From Armatimonadota bacterium (GTDB lineage Bacteria; Armatimonadota; UBA5829): a DNA stretch of 33,309 nt. A model generated the notes under the pieces. It was not told where the DNA came from, made no database searches, and saw nothing but the letters and a program-made list of their open reading frames with translations. Location: positions 1 through 33,309 of the forward strand of contig JBDKUO010000068.1 in assembly GCA_039679645.1 (NCBI GenBank), in the 5' to 3' direction. Made by a program: the position numbers and the translations under genes. Positions 3,838-11,178 of this stretch are shown piece after piece. Every line of letters begins with the position of its first letter. Positions within the stretch are counted from its first letter, which is position 1.

Positions 3838-3864
3838 TGGGTGTTAGGGGTTAGGTGTTGGGGT
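3831..3864 (+). repeat. G-rich GGTGTTAGG-like tract overlapping the mfd stop
   Basis: Four G runs occur within about 34 bases: GGG, GGG, GGGG and GGGG, with loops of roughly 4, 5 and 9 bases. The GGTGTTAGG-type units are degenerate tandem copies and begin inside the last codons of mfd. The spacing allows a G-quadruplex on the sense strand or its RNA. Confidence 0.35.
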
Positions 3865-3886
3865 GGCAATTTGCGAATTGCCACCC
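3861..3886. repeat. Perfect 11-bp hairpin after mfd (REP-like or weak terminator)
   Basis: GGGTGGCAATT (3861-3871) pairs perfectly with AATTGCCACCC (3876-3886) across the tetraloop TGCG. There is no clear U tract in either direction, so a standard intrinsic terminator is doubtful, although it lies between convergent mfd and thsB. The arm resembles the inverted repeat at 5502-5523 and 5758-5779 (shared GGGTGGC, ATTT, CGAAT), which suggests one dispersed repeat family. Confidence 0.5.
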
Positions 3887-3906
3887 AGAAAATATTCCAT
3901 CTACAC

Positions 3907-4491
3907 TTACTTGCGAATATTACAGAATGTGTCATAGCATGTTAGGTATCCAAATGCTTCATGAGCTTCGTGTGAATAATGATTAACACTGCCATTTAGT
4001 TTCATGCTAAGTACATCAAATTGTCCAATAGCATCAAGAAGCGCATTTTTAGCAAAAGGTATATGAATTGCATTGGCGGTTGTATTATTAATCCTTTTAC
4101 TGAGAGCTGTTGGCCAGTAACTCGAGAGCTTTTGCGGGTCAGCAATCGCCTTATATTCAACATACGCTATAATCAGCGGTAGTTTATAATTATCGACAGC
4201 ATTTTCGATCTCGTATGAGAGTTTGCTCCCTGATTTACGAGTATCAGAACTAAGTATTACAACCATATTTTTTGAATAGGAAAGGCGCTCTTTAATCCTT
4301 GACTCGAGAGTCGCATCGAGACTTGTATCCCTAACAGCATAAGTTTTTTCATGGCTGTCAACATATGCAAATTCTATATTATTATTAGCATTCCAAGCTT
4401 TAATGTCGGCAAAATACTTGAAATCTGAAAGTACTGGATTTGTTTCTCCCAGCCCATCAAAAGCTATGTATGTTCCGTTTCGATATGCCAT
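3907..4491 (-). CDS. thsB: Thoeris ThsB, TIR-like signal-producing sensor
   Basis: ThsB proteins of Thoeris detect phage infection and use NAD+ to make a nucleotide messenger that activates ThsA; for type II Thoeris a histidine-ADP-ribose signal has been reported. The 194 residues begin MAYRNGTYIAFDG, the N-terminal pattern of the TIR-like (DUF1863) ThsB family. The core follows: W33 of KAWNANN, DSHEKT at 45-50, SKNMVVILS at 73-81 and YEIE at 93-96, where E94 or E96 is the likely catalytic glutamate. The C terminus carries a Tyr/His-containing tail (NHYSHEAHEAFGY). The ATG at 4491 is preferred because GGAG lies 6 nt upstream and it starts 2 nt after the thsA stop; a TTG at 4503 would add four residues. 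It forms an operon with thsA and is visibly AT-richer than mfd, consistent with transfer. Confidence 0.88.
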   Translation of the reverse strand: MAYRNGTYIAFDGLGETNPVLSDFKYFADIKAWNANNNIEFAYVDSHEKTYAVRDTSLDATLESRIKERLSYSKNMVVILSSDTRKSGSKLSYEIENAVDNYKLPLIIAYVEYKAIADPQKLSSYWPTALSKRINNTTANAIHIPFAKNALLDAIGQFDVLSMKLNGSVNHYSHEAHEAFGYLTCYDTFCNIRK

Positions 4492-4493
4492 TA

Positions 4494-5339
4494 CTAGCTC
4501 CAATTTTGCTTTATTGATATAAGGTTTATCTCTGACATCTTCACTGTAGGTAATACTATTCGAATCTCATCTGAGATTTTGTTAAACTTTGTCTCCTCAA
4601 ATACAGCTGTTAGAATAAGATCGACGAGTATGTTGCTCTTGATACCCGTTCTTGCTAAGCCAGAGCCCATGAGAGGAATATTGATTGGTTCATTTGCACA
4701 TACAGAACGCGCTTTTGTCAATAATCCCCTGAGAGCTTTATTAAGATCAGACGAATCCGCTTTTGTTTGCAATGTATTAATATCTGTGTGTGTGAGAGCC
4801 ACAAAGAGAAACTTATTGCCACCTGTTGTAACAGCTGCTGTTGAGCCAATATCATATCTCTGTTGCTTACCACTTGCACGGGAAACAGTAGTAGAATCAA
4901 TAGTTTTCAACTGCTCTGCTACTTGGGTATCCCAATCGTTTATGTTTCCACCCCAATATTTTTTAAGTACATTGCCATGCACACTTCTTTCTGCTATATG
5001 CTTGTTATCCACTATGCTATCAAAAAAATCATTAACGGCAATTGCTTTCCATCCGTTATTGCAGAACATGTCTGCAAATTCCACAATGATTTTCGTATCA
5101 AAGCCGTTGCTCATTATCTGGATGCTTTTCCTGAAGAAGCCAGAAATATAATAGCCATCAATAATCATCCACAAAATGCCAGCCATCGCCGAAAATAATA
5201 GTAGCTGCCAATATTTTAGATTGATCGATTTTCCTGTTAATCCGATGGCTGGATCAATTACAAGCCAAAATGCACCAAGCACGGTAAAAATTGATTTTGG
5301 ATAACGCCAACCCACTGCTTTCAAGAATCGAAGAAACAA
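4494..5339 (-). CDS. thsA: Thoeris type II ThsA effector (two TM segments plus macro domain)
   Basis: This is the membrane effector of type II Thoeris: the macro domain binds the ThsB-made signal and the membrane segments presumably oligomerise and damage the inner membrane. The 281 residues contain hydrophobic helices at about 17-33 (TVLGAFWLVIDPAIGL) and 43-66 (LLLFSAMAGILWMIID). A ThsA-type macro domain runs from about 80 to the end, with ALTHTD, and the ligand-loop signature IPLMGSGLARTG. The start is TTG at 5339 with AGGAG 8 nt upstream; no ATG fits better. The gene order thsA-thsB is the usual one, with only 2 nt between the stop and the thsB ATG. There is no SIR2 or SLOG domain, which separates it from type I ThsA. 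Confidence 0.85.
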   Translation of the reverse strand: MFLRFLKAVGWRYPKSIFTVLGAFWLVIDPAIGLTGKSINLKYWQLLLFSAMAGILWMIIDGYYISGFFRKSIQIMSNGFDTKIIVEFADMFCNNGWKAIAVNDFFDSIVDNKHIAERSVHGNVLKKYWGGNINDWDTQVAEQLKTIDSTTVSRASGKQQRYDIGSTAAVTTGGNKFLFVALTHTDINTLQTKADSSDLNKALRGLLTKARSVCANEPINIPLMGSGLARTGIKSNILVDLILTAVFEETKFNKISDEIRIVLPTVKMSEINLISIKQNWS

Positions 5340-5501: not shown

Positions 5502-5779
5502 CTGGGTGGCGATTTCCGAATCCCGAAACTAATCAACCAACAAATGGCGCATCGCTACAGAGTAATCCCCGAAGAAACCTATCCCTATCTGATCACGTGC
5601 ACAATCATAAGATGGCTGCCTGTATTCATTTAGGTGCACAATAATCCGGTGCGCAAGGGGTTTAATCTTGGATGCTGGGGACTCAAGCGCAGGTTTTTAC
5701 CTAAATAAGTGAGAAGGTCCGCTGGAAGTTGATATAACTGAGTGGTTGAGGTTTGCCGGATTCGGAAATAGCCACCCAG
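5502..5779. mobile_element. Decayed element bounded by 22-bp inverted repeats
   Basis: The 22 bases at 5502-5523 (starting CTGGGTGGCGATTTCC) are repeated as reverse complement at 5758-5779 with a single mismatch. The 278-bp interval encloses an N-terminal transposase fragment (5544-5633). The arms resemble the hairpin after mfd. I read this as the remains of a REP/RAYT-type mobile unit. Ends and any target duplication are not certain. Confidence 0.5.
5544..5633 (+). pseudogene. N-terminal fragment of a REP-associated (Y1/IS200-like) transposase
   Basis: The 29 residues from the ATG at 5544 to a TAG at 5631-5633 read RVIPEETYPYLITCTII, then RWLPVF. This matches my memory of the N-terminal pattern of RAYT-type Y1 transposases, in which a PxxYYFIT-like strand is followed by T-hydrophobic-W-hydrophobic-PVF. 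The HUH histidine pair and catalytic tyrosine that should follow are absent, so this is a broken remnant. It starts 20 bp inside the left 22-bp inverted repeat. The recognition rests on pattern memory only. Confidence 0.45.
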
Positions 5780-5895
5780 AATGCAAAAAGCTCGTGGGAA
5801 CGATAACCGATCCAAGGGCTTATTGGTGAGAAGCATGGCGGTCCCAAGGGGAACCGGGGTATATGTATATTCCCTACCTCATTTCGCTTCACAGC

Positions 5896-6128
5896 TACAC
5901 TCAACAAGAAACGCGGGCATGGGTTTAGATCGGCGTAACTTATTCTGCCATATCAGATGGCCACTTTCTTCCTCGTATCGCACTGACAGGTAAAGCCATT
6001 TGCCGAGCGCATTCGCTCCGCAGGGGCGAGGAGCTTTGTAAGGAGCGCTGGAGTATGATTATTCAAACTCGCTACTGATATCTTACACCCAACAAAAAAA
6101 ACGTAAGCATGGGTGTAGAGCAGCGTAG
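5896..6128. repeat. Imperfect 45-bp direct repeat pair with hairpin potential
   Basis: Copy 1 is 5896-5938 and copy 2 is 6084-6128. Both read TACAC[TC]CAACAA, then an A-rich stretch with ACG, then GCATGGG, TAGA/TAGAG and GCGTA. In copy 2, TACACCCA (6084-6091) pairs perfectly with TGGGTGTA (6110-6117); copy 1 keeps the stem with one mismatch and a G-U pair. Partial retention of pairing suggests that structure, not coding, was conserved. Confidence 0.5.
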
Positions 6129-6481: not shown

Positions 6482-7453
6482 TCACTTGCAAATTGGCGAA
6501 CAAAAACACTTTATTCTGCAAGCATGATCGTGATCGTCAGGTGTTACTTGAATACCTGTAGAACTGAAACAGAAAGATATATCTCCCGCGCAAGGCACAT
6601 TAGTGTCACTTGAATTGCCACTGCAGAGATGTGTCGCCTGAGTGCAAAGTATCTTTTTGACATATTGACATTTTGAAATTGCCCGTATTGCGCTTTCGGA
6701 AGGGTGTTTGTATTTGTTAATAGAACCAACTGAGATCACGACATATTCGGGTTGGATTGCATTCAATACATCATCGACGGACACTTGATCATTCGAAAAA
6801 TCAGAACCATGGTGTGGAAAGCGAAACACATTGGCTTGTGGGTCAAAACCATTAGATAAAATCCTACCCCAAGCCTCGGCTTGACTATCGGCACCAACGA
6901 GAATCCCATATGTCTTTTCATCTATTTTATATGATATTTTCACTACCGTTCCTATATCATTGCATACAGAAGTGGTATAAAAATCACCAAACCCAATATC
7001 AAGAATGTCGTTTTCATCCGGATAGATGGAATTTACACTCATGTTCCCAAGCTGTATAGACCCATTAGGGAGTAGAAATGTCGGTTTTGCCTTACAATGT
7101 TGAGCGATTGTTTGTCTGATTCCTTGTATCACAGATCGTGATCGTTTTCCTGCTCGCGTGTCTCGTTTATAAGATAGGCCAAGAATGAAATAAGTAAGCG
7201 CAGAAATATCCACACTACTAAGAACTCTTACGAACCCAGCATAGTGGTCTTCGTGGCAATGTGTTAGTACGATCATATCAAGCTTGATACCATTCTTGCT
7301 TAGATCAGTAAGTCGCTCAATAGTGGGCTTGGCATTAGCACAGTCAATCATAGCTGCAGTTTTGCCACCATAGTCAATTACCATTGAGCAGTCACCTTGC
7401 CCCACATTAAAAAATACGGCCTCAAATACTGTATTTGTTTTGGTTTGCCGCAT
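6482..7453 (-). CDS. ComEC-type metallo-beta-lactamase-fold hydrolase paired with DNA methyltransferase
   Basis: The fold uses two metal ions to hydrolyse phosphodiester or other bonds; the ComEC/Rec2 branch is linked to nucleic acid cleavage. The 323 residues show the full motif set: NVGQGDCS near the N terminus, metal-binding THCHEDHYAG around 64-72, the HHG motif in FPHHGSD near 212, an aspartate in ILVGADSQAE, and SVGSINKYKHP late in the domain as in ComEC-type hydrolases. The C terminus is cysteine-rich (ten Cys in the last 60 residues or so, among them CKC-like and PIC patterns), which may bind another metal. I chose the ATG at 7453, which has AGGTGA 8 nt upstream; a GTG at 7465 overlapping the methyltransferase stop would add four residues. 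There is no signal peptide, so it is likely cytoplasmic. It is co-transcribed with the methyltransferase. Confidence 0.8.
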   Translation of the reverse strand: MRQTKTNTVFEAVFFNVGQGDCSMVIDYGGKTAAMIDCANAKPTIERLTDLSKNGIKLDMIVLTHCHEDHYAGFVRVLSSVDISALTYFILGLSYKRDTRAGKRSRSVIQGIRQTIAQHCKAKPTFLLPNGSIQLGNMSVNSIYPDENDILDIGFGDFYTTSVCNDIGTVVKISYKIDEKTYGILVGADSQAEAWGRILSNGFDPQANVFRFPHHGSDFSNDQVSVDDVLNAIQPEYVVISVGSINKYKHPSESAIRAISKCQYVKKILCTQATHLCSGNSSDTNVPCAGDISFCFSSTGIQVTPDDHDHACRIKCFCSPICK

Positions 7454-7457
7454 GATT

Positions 7458-10166
7458 CTAGTCACCTATGCCCGAAAGCAGTTCATCGTTGTTTAAATAT
7501 CCATAATCTAAAGGCTGAATACACATTAAGACTGGTTCGTGATGCTTTGAGTACAATAGATCAGCAGAAAATGTGGATTCCTTTCTTAGTAACCATCCTG
7601 AGCATTCAGTAGGAATTGCAATCCATACAGCTTCGTCATCAATATCACTGCTGCTCACCCAGATTCTCATTCGACGGTTTGTAACATCCAAGTCCTCTAC
7701 AACTCCAACGATGGGAACTGGTTCGCCTCCCGGCCTTTGTGGCTCATTAGATGGTAGTGGTGTGTCCATCATCCACTTCTCTTTAGGTGGGCCAAACCCA
7801 GCGAAAAGAGTGTCCAAGAAGGCACACTCTGAGGTGCTAAGCTCGTAGGCTTGCCTAAGTATGAAGTCAATCTCAAGGAAGAGCTTTCTTCGATCTTCCG
7901 GTTCGTGCGTGCCAAACAGACTTAGCTCTGAGAGGCGGCGAACCAGTTCAACGATCTGATTTTGCTGAACCTTATCGAAGCAAGGGAAAGGAACCTGTTC
8001 CACCAAAACCGGTGATACCGACCGCGATGCTCCTCGAAAATAGGCCCAAGCGTTGGCAACGGTGCCGTTTACAACTGCCGCAATCTCTTCCAGTGTCGTT
8101 TCGGTTCCTTCATTAGGCACAATGCAGTGCATGTAGTTGGATGGAACCAAGCCAGCTATATCCACACAACCATACAGTCGCCATGGATTCCCGCCGGGTA
8201 TAGCGCGTGCGCTAACGATCACTTTTGACTCTGACATGCGGTTCAAGACACCCAACGATATTGGTTTTGTAAACGTTCCGGGGAACTCGGCATAGAGCCG
8301 ATCCTGCTCAGACCAGTTAGAGCAAAATGCCGCAAGGAACTTTTGCCCTCCGAGCCATTTTCGCCAATGGGGACCGGACTCTCGTTTGCTGAATCGCCCC
8401 CCAGTAGGGGGTTGGCCGCTAAAGACGCTGGCCCGATCTGACAACACACCTCTCTCGCAAAGCCGACTCCACATCTCACCGAGAGGTAGCGTAGAAATCA
8501 CGCACGAATCCCGCCATTCTTTAGCCGCCAATGAGACCTCTGAGAAAGTTGGCCGTCCATGCTGGAGGAGTGCCTCTCGATCATCCTCCCTATGAACCGT
8601 CCATTGAACTTTGACGGGAAAGGCGAATTGTGGAGTCTGCCGTATCTTACGGACGAACATGACCACGGTCGATGCTGATGACATCGGCATCACGTCCCGT
8701 GGCAGATGCCACAATTCGAATATCTCAGCCTTATCCAGTAACAGCCGACGTTGCTGAGCACTTGTGCTGCTATCCAGGAATGTCTCTGGCAGTATCATGG
8801 CCAAAAAGCCATCATCGGCCAGCATATTCAAACTGCTGATCAAGAAAGCAGATGCACGTTCTTCGGAACGAGACCTAAGTTCGCGCATACGCTGCACTTG
8901 GGACTCACCGTCCTCCGCATCACCACCAAATGGAGGATTGCCAACTATGATCGATGGTCTGAGTGAATTGTCGAAATCCTGGGGAAAATACCCGCACTTC
9001 ACTTTCCAGTTGTTCCCTGATGGAAGGCTATGCAGGATCAGAGAGACTGTCGCTATTTCCTTCGCAACGCGATCTGCATCTATGCCGAGTATGTGCTGGG
9101 ACAGATATTCATGGCGCTCAGACGGTGTATACCACTTGGGCAGAAGCTGCTCCAAACGGTCATATGCTGCACGAAGAAATGTTCCAGAACCGCATGTAGG
9201 ATCGAGAATTGTTCTCTGTTCCCGAGGCAACTCTTCCAGCGGAACGCATTGCAATATCTGGCGAGCAAGAGCTGTCGGCGTATAGTGAATGCCGTACTTC
9301 TTACGGTACTTATCATGTGGTGTAAGAAAGACGTTCTCGTATACGTCGCTCAATACCTCGTTTGTAAGTGCCCGAAAAGACATTCCGCACCTGAGAGTCG
9401 TTAGCATATTATCCAAGACACTATAATCCAATACCTCCTCCGCTTCCGGCGGAAAATAGTGAGGAAATAGGCGACGGACACATGGCAGCAATTCCCGAAC
9501 GGATGCTCTTCTCATATCTGATTCGAGTAGGTTTGGGGCCTTCTCAGCAACTGCTTGTGCAGCTACAAGACGAATCGTAGCCTCCAACACTTGATGCTCA
9601 TCTAGTAATACTTTCCTGTCCATCCGCGATCCTTCGGCCACCGCCATTTCCACTCGTTCCTTAAGCAGATTGCCGGTAATATTAAGTGCGTACGCAAGTA
9701 GATCAGGGTCGAAATCAAACAGCGAGTGTTGAAGATAATGGTGATTGCGGGTTTTCGCCTTTAATAAAGTGCGAGGTTCGAATGTTGCAAGGTTGTCCCT
9801 TAGGAATCGCTCAAGTTTATCATAGCCGATTTTTACCGGCTTGGGGATATGATGAGCATTAGAGTGAACTGTATAGAACGTAGTCTCGCGAGGGCTTAGC
9901 AAAGCAGCGATGGGACTCGCCAGATACAGAGACGGCTCTAGAACTTTTCCCACTGCCTTGGATGAATCCACCCAGGTGCCTGTTATACATGCGGTCTGTT
10001 GATCTTTACGTAATGAATCACCAAAAGCGACTAAGTCGACATTAACCCGGACTTTTTGGATAGGTACGGGGACTGGAAAGTCTCGTTCCAAAGCTTCTGA
10101 GGGGTAACCGATTGTTGTAAGAGCTTCGGACAGTATATTAACGGCTTCTTTCTTGTGAACGTTCAT
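7458..10166 (-). CDS. N6-adenine DNA methyltransferase (type IIG/Eco57I-like) of a putative defence pair
   Basis: It is predicted to transfer a methyl group from S-adenosylmethionine to adenine N6 in DNA. In the 902 residues from the ATG at 10166, the SAM motif ILDPTCGSGTF starts at about residue 320 and the catalytic NPPF at about 410. A target-recognition-like region follows (SGQPPTGG, KWLGGQKF, a long variable part, then VEQVPFP), and a roughly 100-residue C-terminal extension has no clear homology. The N-terminal 130 residues look like a degenerate PD-(D/E)XK fold: VDLVAF is present, but the following strand reads ACITGTW instead of ExK, so cleavage activity is doubtful. GGGGGC lies just before the ATG; a TTG at 10181 is possible. 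The stop is 4 nt before the MBL ATG. Confidence 0.85.
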   Translation of the reverse strand: MNVHKKEAVNILSEALTTIGYPSEALERDFPVPVPIQKVRVNVDLVAFGDSLRKDQQTACITGTWVDSSKAVGKVLEPSLYLASPIAALLSPRETTFYTVHSNAHHIPKPVKIGYDKLERFLRDNLATFEPRTLLKAKTRNHHYLQHSLFDFDPDLLAYALNITGNLLKERVEMAVAEGSRMDRKVLLDEHQVLEATIRLVAAQAVAEKAPNLLESDMRRASVRELLPCVRRLFPHYFPPEAEEVLDYSVLDNMLTTLRCGMSFRALTNEVLSDVYENVFLTPHDKYRKKYGIHYTPTALARQILQCVPLEELPREQRTILDPTCGSGTFLRAAYDRLEQLLPKWYTPSERHEYLSQHILGIDADRVAKEIATVSLILHSLPSGNNWKVKCGYFPQDFDNSLRPSIIVGNPPFGGDAEDGESQVQRMRELRSRSEERASAFLISSLNMLADDGFLAMILPETFLDSSTSAQQRRLLLDKAEIFELWHLPRDVMPMSSASTVVMFVRKIRQTPQFAFPVKVQWTVHREDDREALLQHGRPTFSEVSLAAKEWRDSCVISTLPLGEMWSRLCERGVLSDRASVFSGQPPTGGRFSKRESGPHWRKWLGGQKFLAAFCSNWSEQDRLYAEFPGTFTKPISLGVLNRMSESKVIVSARAIPGGNPWRLYGCVDIAGLVPSNYMHCIVPNEGTETTLEEIAAVVNGTVANAWAYFRGASRSVSPVLVEQVPFPCFDKVQQNQIVELVRRLSELSLFGTHEPEDRRKLFLEIDFILRQAYELSTSECAFLDTLFAGFGPPKEKWMMDTPLPSNEPQRPGGEPVPIVGVVEDLDVTNRRMRIWVSSSDIDDEAVWIAIPTECSGWLLRKESTFSADLLYSKHHEPVLMCIQPLDYGYLNNDELLSGIGD

Positions 10167-10223: not shown

Positions 10224-10252
10224 AATGTATTACAATACTGGCTTAATGTCAA
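10224..10252 (-). promoter_or_regulatory. Promoter of the methyltransferase-MBL operon with operator-like repeats
   Basis: On the minus strand TTGACA (10247-10252) and TACATT (10224-10229) are 17 bases apart, giving a start near 10217 and a leader of about 50 nt. Around the -10, GTATT-GT-AATAC forms a 5-bp inverted repeat and CATTAAG occurs twice, once on each side of it. This is a plausible binding site for a regulator. Confidence 0.5.
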
Positions 10253-10313: not shown

Positions 10314-11147
10314 TTAGTAATTCCTCCACACACACTCTATCCTCTTCTGTCTCTCACCCATCGCCCCAACGCCCTGCAGCCCGCTTGCCCGCGTCCGTCC
10401 GGCAGCTTTGCAGTTGACCTCCCACTCCTGCCGCTGCCAGCCGAGAGTGTCGTATAGCTCGTTGGGATAGCCGGAAAGCATTGCTTTGCCCTTGACATGC
10501 CGCAGCAGCTCCACCAGGTCCTGATGGTCCTCTTCCGTCATTTCGTGCCGGTAGCCGCCAGCGCGGCGAGTGCTCGGCACATAAGGTGGATCGAGATAGA
10601 AAAACGTCTCCGGCGTGTCATATATTTTGAGAATCCGGCGGAAGTCGTAGCACTCTATCTCTACTCTGCTGAGCCTCTCAGAAATGAGCGGAAGCATACA
10701 GAGCACATTCTTGTAGGCCGACGCTTTTTCGGCCATCCCGCGCGATGAAGAAGTAACACCCAGGCCGAAAGCATTACCGACTATACCGCTGAAACTGAAC
10801 CTGGCCAGCACAAAGAACCTGCGCGCTCGCTCAACCGGATCGGTGTCATCATTGAGATGCTGGCGGCAGAAATTGTATTCCTCCCGGCTGTAAGGGCTGA
10901 GCCAGGCGCGCTGGTAGAAGTCGGCAAACTGGGTCGGATCGCGGAGGACTCGAAAGAAATTGACCAGGTCGCCGTCAAGATCATTGTATACCTCAACCGG
11001 ACTGGGGTCCTTAGATAATAGTAGCGAGCCGCCTCCGCCGAACGGCTCGACATAGGTATGATGCTCGGGGAAGAGTGGAAGAAGCTTTTTGGCAAGCAGC
11101 TGCTTGCCGCCAAACCACTGAATTGGGGAATGAAGTTTTGTGGACAT
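10314..11147 (-). CDS. dam: Phage DNA adenine methylase, D12 (Dam) class
   Basis: It methylates adenine in DNA, typically at GATC or a related short site. The 277 residues show IQWFGGKQ at 9-16, the SAM-binding VEPFGGGGS at 33-41, DLDGDLVNFFRVLR after it, and the catalytic DPPY at 186-189 with the following STRRAGGYRHEMTEEDH typical of D12 enzymes. The ATG at 11147 has GGAGG 5 nt upstream; an earlier GTG at 11171 is less likely. It is the last gene of the prophage late region, behind the amidase terminator and a LexA-like box. A prophage solitary methylase may protect phage DNA from host restriction or alter host expression. Confidence 0.9.
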   Translation of the reverse strand: MSTKLHSPIQWFGGKQLLAKKLLPLFPEHHTYVEPFGGGGSLLLSKDPSPVEVYNDLDGDLVNFFRVLRDPTQFADFYQRAWLSPYSREEYNFCRQHLNDDTDPVERARRFFVLARFSFSGIVGNAFGLGVTSSSRGMAEKASAYKNVLCMLPLISERLSRVEIECYDFRRILKIYDTPETFFYLDPPYVPSTRRAGGYRHEMTEEDHQDLVELLRHVKGKAMLSGYPNELYDTLGWQRQEWEVNCKAAGRTRASGLQGVGAMGERQKRIECVWRNY

Positions 11148-11164
11148 AATTACCTCCAAAAGCT

Positions 11165-11178
11165 CGAACACTTGTTCG
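11165..11178. promoter_or_regulatory. LexA-type SOS box upstream of dam
   Basis: Read on the minus strand the site is CGAACAAGTGTTCG. This fits the Gram-positive LexA consensus CGAAC-RNRY-GTTYG at every specified position and is a 10-base palindrome with 4 central bases. It lies 18 bp upstream of the dam ATG and downstream of the amidase terminator. I could not find a convincing promoter overlapping it, so its role is inferred. Confidence 0.45.

What the first reader, a model, noticed from the sequence alone, without database searches (positions are those of the whole stretch)
6482..10166. Methyltransferase-MBL pair as a possible undescribed defence module
A large Eco57I-like N6 adenine methyltransferase and a ComEC-type MBL hydrolase share one promoter, are spaced by 4 bp and sit next to Thoeris. 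MBL-fold nucleases are known in DNA uptake and in some defence systems, but I know of no named system made of exactly these two genes. Inference: the MBL protein supplies nuclease activity to a methyltransferase lacking its own.
Basis: inference. Interest (0 to 1): 0.7.

Follow-up and report, generated by a model that had tools for sequence, protein, structure and literature searches.

The report
DNA methylase with swappable toxin partner
A large bacterial DNA-marking enzyme is inherited as a tight gene pair with a predicted DNA-cutting enzyme, and in related bacteria the same marking enzyme is paired with other toxins instead, which suggests an undescribed anti-virus module in which the marking enzyme holds and triggers an exchangeable weapon.

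Summary
A 902-aa N6-adenine methyltransferase (MTase) and a 323-aa ComEC-type metallo-beta-lactamase (MBL) lie 4 bp apart at the cargo end of a Mu-like prophage, next to Thoeris, in an Armatimonadota genome. The pair is conserved: 10 of 10 relatives carrying this MTase type in Armatimonadota, Cyanobacteriota and Planctomycetota have the MBL gene directly downstream (gap -14 to +8 bp). It matches no named family tested; the look-alike name "6A-MBL" is something else.

A sister branch sharing the N-terminal, catalytic and target-recognition regions carries a PIN ribonuclease gene (5 loci) or a RES NAD-depleting toxin gene (1 locus) in that slot. In the RES case the MTase ends in the cognate Xre/MbcA/ParS antitoxin domain; MBL-linked MTases share a C-terminal domain that the others lack. 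I infer a methyltransferase chassis that restrains and triggers an exchangeable toxic effector, rather than plain restriction. In a sister genome the same prophage slot holds CRISPR-Cas9 instead. Nothing has been tested at the bench; RES is n=1.

The parts
7458..10166 (-). N6-adenine DNA methyltransferase, 902 aa, first gene of the pair
   Evidence: Open frame; N6_Mtase 1.4e-21, Eco57I 5.2e-9; motifs DPTCGSGTFL and GNPPF kept across relatives
9402..10166 (-). MTase residues 1-255: N-terminal region of unknown function, shared by MBL-, PIN- and RES-linked relatives
   Evidence: Profile from MBL-linked rows finds PIN/RES-linked rows at 1e-8 to 2e-10 and no other MTase; no Pfam hit
8622..9401 (-). 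MTase residues 256-515: catalytic domain
   Evidence: Pfam/PADLOC matches confined here; nearest solved structures are type I M subunits and BseCI
7797..8621 (-). MTase residues 516-790: probable target-recognition region
   Evidence: Weak TaqI_C match in the 49%-identical relative; CamA aligned to profile position 759; shared with PIN/RES-linked relatives at 1e-17 to 1e-22
7461..7796 (-). MTase residues 791-902: C-terminal domain present in all ten MBL-linked relatives and not detected in PIN/RES-linked ones; inferred MBL-coupling or restraint domain
6482..7453 (-). ComEC-type MBL-fold protein, 323 aa, predicted DNase effector, second gene of the pair
7244..7264 (-). MBL metal-binding motif THCHEDH (residues 64-70)
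   Evidence: H65, D69, H70 invariant and H67 H or D in ten relatives
6584..6646 (-). MBL C-terminal Cys motif C270..C277..C288-A-G, invariant in ten relatives
10224..10252 (-). sigma-70-like promoter TTGACA-17-TACATT upstream of the pair
   Evidence: 10 of 12 matches; consensus match only
3907..5339 (-). Neighbour: Thoeris ThsA (macro domain) and ThsB (TIR-like)
   Evidence: separate unit, not part of the pair
10314..11171 (-). Neighbour: phage Dam-type MTase (phrog_56), the conserved prophage gene bordering the cargo slot
   Evidence: 90% aa identical next to the same slot in G004

Best explanation
The pair is an anti-phage (or anti-mobile-element) module made of a methyltransferase chassis and an exchangeable toxic effector. 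The chassis (N-terminal region, N6-adenine MTase domain, target-recognition region) reads and methylates DNA. Its C-terminal tail is matched to the effector encoded by the next gene and keeps that effector inactive while the chassis is bound to or busy on normally methylated host DNA. When incoming DNA presents unmethylated sites, or a phage interferes with the MTase, the effector is freed or switched on. In this window the effector is a ComEC-type MBL DNase; in relatives it is a PIN ribonuclease or a RES NAD-depleting toxin. Shown by sequence: the conserved pair, intact catalytic motifs, the shared chassis, the partner swap, the fused RES antitoxin in one relative, the MBL-specific tail, the defence neighbourhood. 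Inferred: methylation and cleavage activities, restraint by the tail, the trigger, and protection against phage.
For: 1) Ten MBL-linked loci in three phyla, gaps -14 to +8 bp. 2) Profiles built only from MBL-linked MTases find the PIN/RES-linked MTases in the N-terminal (1e-8 to 2e-10), catalytic (1e-30 to 1e-52) and TRD (1e-17 to 1e-22) parts, while ordinary type I MTases match only the catalytic part. 3) In that sister set the next gene is PIN (L002, L004, L043, L045, L100) or RES (L003); the tree nests PIN/RES among MBL-linked rows. 4) The tail of the RES-linked MTase matches free Xre/MbcA/ParS antitoxins at 34-36% identity, E about 1e-20, and the two such loci opened have a RES gene directly after the antitoxin; one of 15 MTases hits TIGR02293, a TA antitoxin model. 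5) The C-terminal domain is found in MBL-linked MTases only. 6) MBL metal ligands conserved; closest solved fold is the ComEC nuclease domain. 7) MBL nucleases of this kind are shown effectors in Hachiman and AVAST (PMC12799240). 8) Defence context: Thoeris here; CRISPR-Cas9 in the same slot of a sister genome; PDC-S28 and Shedu beside L004; type IIG R-M beside L003.
Against: RES fusion is a single locus. No antitoxin function is shown for the PIN-linked or MBL-linked tails; one PIN tail had no match in plasmids, and the MBL-linked tail showed no significant relation to the protein upstream of another defence-like MBL. The MTase model is too poor to use (pLDDT 36), so domain borders rest on alignment. 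Several MBL-linked loci show no clear defence gene nearby. No activity data exist.
Confidence: 0.5

Rival explanations
1. A two-protein restriction-modification system: the MTase methylates host sites and recruits the MBL, which cuts unmethylated invading DNA.
For: Conserved pair; DNase fold with intact metal site; MTase without a recognisable nuclease domain; tail specific to the MBL branch could recruit it.
Against: PIN and RES toxins fill the same slot on the same chassis and are not DNA endonucleases; a fused RES antitoxin in one relative.
Confidence: 0.27
2. A toxin-antitoxin or addiction module that stabilises the prophage or plasmid, with the MTase as antitoxin and no direct role against phage.
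For: Toxin-like partners, antitoxin fusion in L003, several copies on plasmids and one in a prophage.
Against: Catalytic MTase motifs and target-recognition region are kept, which an antitoxin alone would not need; defence neighbours and swap with CRISPR-Cas9.
Confidence: 0.13
3. A phage-serving modification gene: the prophage uses the MTase to protect its own DNA from host restriction, and the MBL is a separate nuclease of the phage.
For: Mu-like prophage with a Dam-type MTase next to the pair; right-end modification genes are known in Mu (own knowledge).
Against: The other MBL-linked loci showed no phage genes in the ORFs I read around them (not scanned systematically); no full-length member in phage records or IMG/VR; strict coupling to the MBL.
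Confidence: 0.06

Closest known systems
MBL nuclease effectors of Hachiman, AVAST (Avs1a), Lamassu (LmuA) and DRT
   Same: ComEC-like MBL nuclease used as a defence effector; weak profile matches to RTasMBL, LmuA and Avs1a
   Different: [quoted passage not shown] Here it lies downstream of a DNA MTase and no protease domain was found in the pair
6A-MBL (NCBIfam NF058524)
   Same: Has an MBL-fold protein; similar-sounding name
   Different: Window MBL scores 31.8 bits against a cut-off of 220. In a locus above the cut-off (L102) the MBL is followed by an E1-like/JAB-like protein, read by eye from motifs, not an MTase
ResTA (RES toxin with Xre/MbcA/ParS antitoxin)
   Same: In relative L003 the MTase C-terminus is this antitoxin and the next gene is RES
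   Different: The antitoxin is fused to a DNA MTase; the window copy has MBL instead
Type I M subunits and type IIG enzymes
   Same: Catalytic domain; nearest solved structures StySJI M (2okc) and BseCI (7qw5)
   Different: Distinct N-terminal region, no HsdS/HsdR evident in the open frames around the pair, no recognisable nuclease domain, effector in trans
BREX PglX and MADS Mad2
   Same: Defence-linked adenine MTases with similar catalytic domain
   Different: Scores far below cut-offs: 49 vs 500 and 35 vs 720 bits

Membership tests
6A-MBL | MBL protein above the curated cut-off of NF058524 | tested here: not met
   31.8 vs 220 bits
6A-MBL | Partner gene as in a real member locus | tested here: not met
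   Above-cut-off locus L102 has an E1/JAB-like partner (motif reading) and no MTase beside it; window has an MTase
Nuclease-protease MBL systems (Hachiman, AVAST, Lamassu, DRT) | MBL directly upstream of a trypsin-like protease fusion | tested here: not met
   MBL is downstream of the MTase; no protease domain in the pair; definition from PMC12799240
ComEC-type MBL nuclease fold | Fold and metal ligands of the ComEC nuclease domain | tested here: met
   9ic4 Z 23.5, rmsd 3.1 A over 251 residues; H65, H/D67, D69, H70, D189, H250 kept in 10 of 10
ComEC proper (DNA uptake) | Membrane channel domain | tested here: not met
   323-aa protein, MBL domain only
Type IIG R-M enzyme | Nuclease domain fused in the MTase | tested here: inconclusive
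   No Pfam hit in residues 1-269; profile comparison with one IIG N-terminus gave nothing; MTase model unusable
Type I R-M | hsdS and hsdR genes | not tested
   None evident among the ORFs beside the pair, but the genome was not searched for them
BREX | PglX above NCBIfam cut-off | tested here: not met
   49 vs 500 bits
MADS | Mad2 above NCBIfam cut-off | tested here: not met
   35.4 vs 720 bits
ResTA toxin-antitoxin | Xre/MbcA/ParS antitoxin domain and RES toxin | tested here: not met
   Not in the window; met in the MTase relative L003
Anti-phage defence system | Measured protection against phage | not testable with these tools
   Needs bench work

The most novel reading that the evidence does not exclude
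A previously undescribed class of immunity in which a DNA methyltransferase acts as an antitoxin-like guard: one chassis, with effector-specific C-terminal restraint domains, arms DNase (MBL), RNase (PIN) or NAD-depleting (RES) effectors according to the methylation state of DNA or attack on the MTase.
Probability: 0.4. Interest if true: 0.87.

Novelty: new variant of a known kind. Interest (0 to 1): 0.66.

Why it matters
If right, it joins three things usually treated apart: DNA modification, toxin-antitoxin restraint and exchangeable immune effectors. It would give a testable answer to why some lone adenine methyltransferases with no restriction partner persist on plasmids and prophages, and a simple rule (read the MTase tail, predict the next gene's toxin) for finding more such modules. 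It also separates this pair from the similarly named but unrelated 6A-MBL system.

Tried and rejected
- 6A-MBL as the answer: rejected after finding an above-cut-off locus whose partner is not an MTase. No held paper contains the name.
- A degenerate PD-(D/E)xK nuclease in the MTase N-terminus: suggested to me by DLVAF-like motifs without E-x-K; profile comparison with a type IIG N-terminus and another MTase was no better than shuffled controls. Left as unproved.
- The MBL-linked tail as a relative of the response-regulator-like protein upstream of the Hymenobacter/Burkholderia MBLs: shuffled alignments scored higher. Rejected.
- Phage copies: scans of viral contigs with the MTase alignments and phage records found only the catalytic domain of other MTases; viral MBL hits had no such MTase nearby.
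- AlphaFold model of the MTase: pLDDT 36, not used.
- Free copies of the PIN-linked tail in plasmids: no match. The MBL-linked tail alignment had no stretch conserved enough to scan with.
- Hits L013-L022 of the genome scan: no MBL of this type found beside them and only the catalytic domain matched.
- Rfam: one sub-threshold match only between 3800 and 12500.

Full report
What is there. The window is contig C68 of an Armatimonadota genome: it has 3.41 Mb, and a same-order relative, G018, is named Armatimonadota in the genome collection. On the minus strand, a 902-aa N6-adenine methyltransferase (7458-10166) is followed after 4 bp by a 323-aa MBL-fold protein (6482-7453). The MTase keeps motif I (DPTCGSGTFL) and NPPF; the MBL keeps THCHEDH, D189, PHHG and H250. 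A promoter-like site lies before the MTase. Upstream lie phage genes: a Dam-type MTase (phrog_56), endolysin, further late genes, Mu-like major head gpT, portal and terminase. Downstream lie Thoeris ThsA (macro) and ThsB, then the host gene mfd.

Is the pair real? A 49%-identical MTase in another Armatimonadota family is followed after 4 bp by a 36%-identical MBL, outside any obvious prophage. More distant MTases (about 20-23% identity) in Pseudanabaena and other Cyanobacteriota (L005, L012, L036-L039) and in Planctomycetota (L044, L046) all have an MBL directly downstream, gaps -14 to +8 bp. Decayed copies exist in Cyanobacteriota; one (L042) still has an MBL remnant downstream. The family is rare: strong matches in 2 of 291 Armatimonadota, 8 of 386 Cyanobacteriota (3 of them broken), 3 of 294 Planctomycetota, 1 of 68 genomes of the Hydrogenedentota group and 1 of 386 Actinomycetota genomes; thresholds and query alignments differed between these searches. 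I found no full-length member among phage records or viral contigs.

The partner is exchangeable. Plasmids of Rhizobiaceae and two Planctomycetota genomes hold MTases that match the MBL-linked profile not only in the catalytic domain but also in the N-terminal and target-recognition regions, which no other MTase tested did, apart from one weak target-recognition match. Their next gene is a PIN-domain protein (L002, L004, L043, L045, and L100 from the Hydrogenedentota-group search) or a RES-domain protein (L003); of the PIN proteins, L002 was confirmed by Pfam, L043 and L045 by alignment to it, L100 by reading its sequence. One genome, G823, holds both kinds. In a maximum-likelihood tree the PIN/RES rows form one supported group (100/100) nested among MBL-linked rows with moderate support, so the partner was probably swapped on a conserved chassis; some long branches make the deep order unsure.

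The tail goes with the partner. The last 110 or so residues of the MBL-linked MTases are not detected in PIN/RES-linked ones. The RES-linked MTase L003 instead ends in a domain that matches free Xre/MbcA/ParS antitoxins at 34-36% identity and E about 1e-20. In the two matching loci I opened, that antitoxin gene is directly followed by a RES gene, just as in L003. One of the 15 MTases hits the TA-antitoxin model TIGR02293; I take this to be L003, though the output does not name the row. So in that relative the MTase is fused to the antitoxin of the toxin encoded next. By analogy I infer that the MBL-specific tail binds or restrains the MBL. PIN-linked tails are short; one searched had no match.

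What the MBL most likely does. Its closest solved fold is the nuclease domain of ComEC (9ic4: Foldseek 1.5e-13; VIA Z 23.5 over 251 residues; next best, CbpE, Z 20.0). All ten family members keep the metal ligands and an extra Cys motif (C270, C277, C288) near the C-terminus. Similar MBL nucleases are experimentally shown effectors in Hachiman and AVAST, where a fused protease activates them (PMC12799240). No protease domain was found in this pair, so activation must differ.

Defence context. In the sister genome G004 (Mfd 92-93% identical) the stretch between mfd and the same phage Dam gene (90% aa identical) holds a CRISPR-Cas9 locus with Cas1, a Cas2-like ORF and an array, plus an unknown 286-aa ORF, in place of the MTase-MBL pair and Thoeris. 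In G001 ordinary host genes follow mfd. The prophage end is thus a slot in which defence cargo is exchanged. Elsewhere, L004 lies beside PDC-S28 and Shedu SduA, and L003 beside a type IIG enzyme. Several MBL-linked loci have no clear defence neighbour, so I put a defence role at about 0.75.

Against known systems. NCBIfam lists an 'anti-phage 6A-MBL system', whose name invites confusion. The window MBL scores 31.8 bits against its cut-off of 220, and an above-cut-off locus in an actinomycete has a partner with E1-like and JAB-like motifs (my reading of the sequence) and no MTase. PADLOC and NCBIfam give only generic MTase matches confined to the catalytic domain; BREX and MADS models are far below cut-off. 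Literature searches in the held library found no MTase-MBL or MTase-PIN pair of this kind; preprints and subscription papers are largely not held, so prior description cannot be excluded.

Verdict. Its mechanism is one of two live options. The exchange of a DNase for an RNase or an NAD-depleting toxin, and the fused antitoxin, make me prefer a guarded-effector module (0.5) over plain two-protein restriction (0.27).

Noticed in passing
L081 (G004:C2:499000-517500): Sister genome has Cas9, Cas1, a Cas2-like ORF and a CRISPR array (repeat reading IIAYRRTEGNYS) in the same prophage slot between mfd and the phage Dam gene, plus an unknown 286-aa ORF without Pfam or PADLOC match.
   Followed up: partly
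window 5513-6060: A noncoding stretch between Thoeris and the pair is 79-91% identical to one between the two cargo units in G004 although the cargo differs; smaller pieces recur elsewhere in the genus. No Rfam match.
   Followed up: partly
L010, L103, L104: A different cluster in Hymenobacter and Burkholderia plasmids: N6-MTase, double-HATPase protein, response-regulator-like protein and MBL; a Pseudanabaena plasmid has the last three, its MBL split by an IS982 transposase.
   Followed up: partly
L005, L036, L039, L004: A MerR-like regulator lies beside the MTase in three cyanobacterial loci (divergent in L039), and a small HTH-like gene precedes the PIN-linked MTase in L004; the window copy has none.
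   Followed up: no
L040, L041, L042: Cyanobacterial copies of the MTase broken by stops, one with an MBL remnant: the module is lost repeatedly.
   Followed up: no
window 3907-5339: Thoeris here has a ThsA with N-terminal hydrophobic segments and a macro domain rather than a SIR2 domain.
   Followed up: no
window 3860-3890: Hairpin GGGTGGCAATTTGCGAATTGCCACCC after mfd; a similar hairpin lies near the shared noncoding stretch in G004, so it may be a repeated genome element.
   Followed up: no
L095, L097 (G1063 chromosome ends): Two copies of the 6A-MBL MBL gene lie near the two ends of a 9.2-Mb actinomycete chromosome contig, followed in L102 by an E1/JAB-like and a patatin-like gene.
   Followed up: partly
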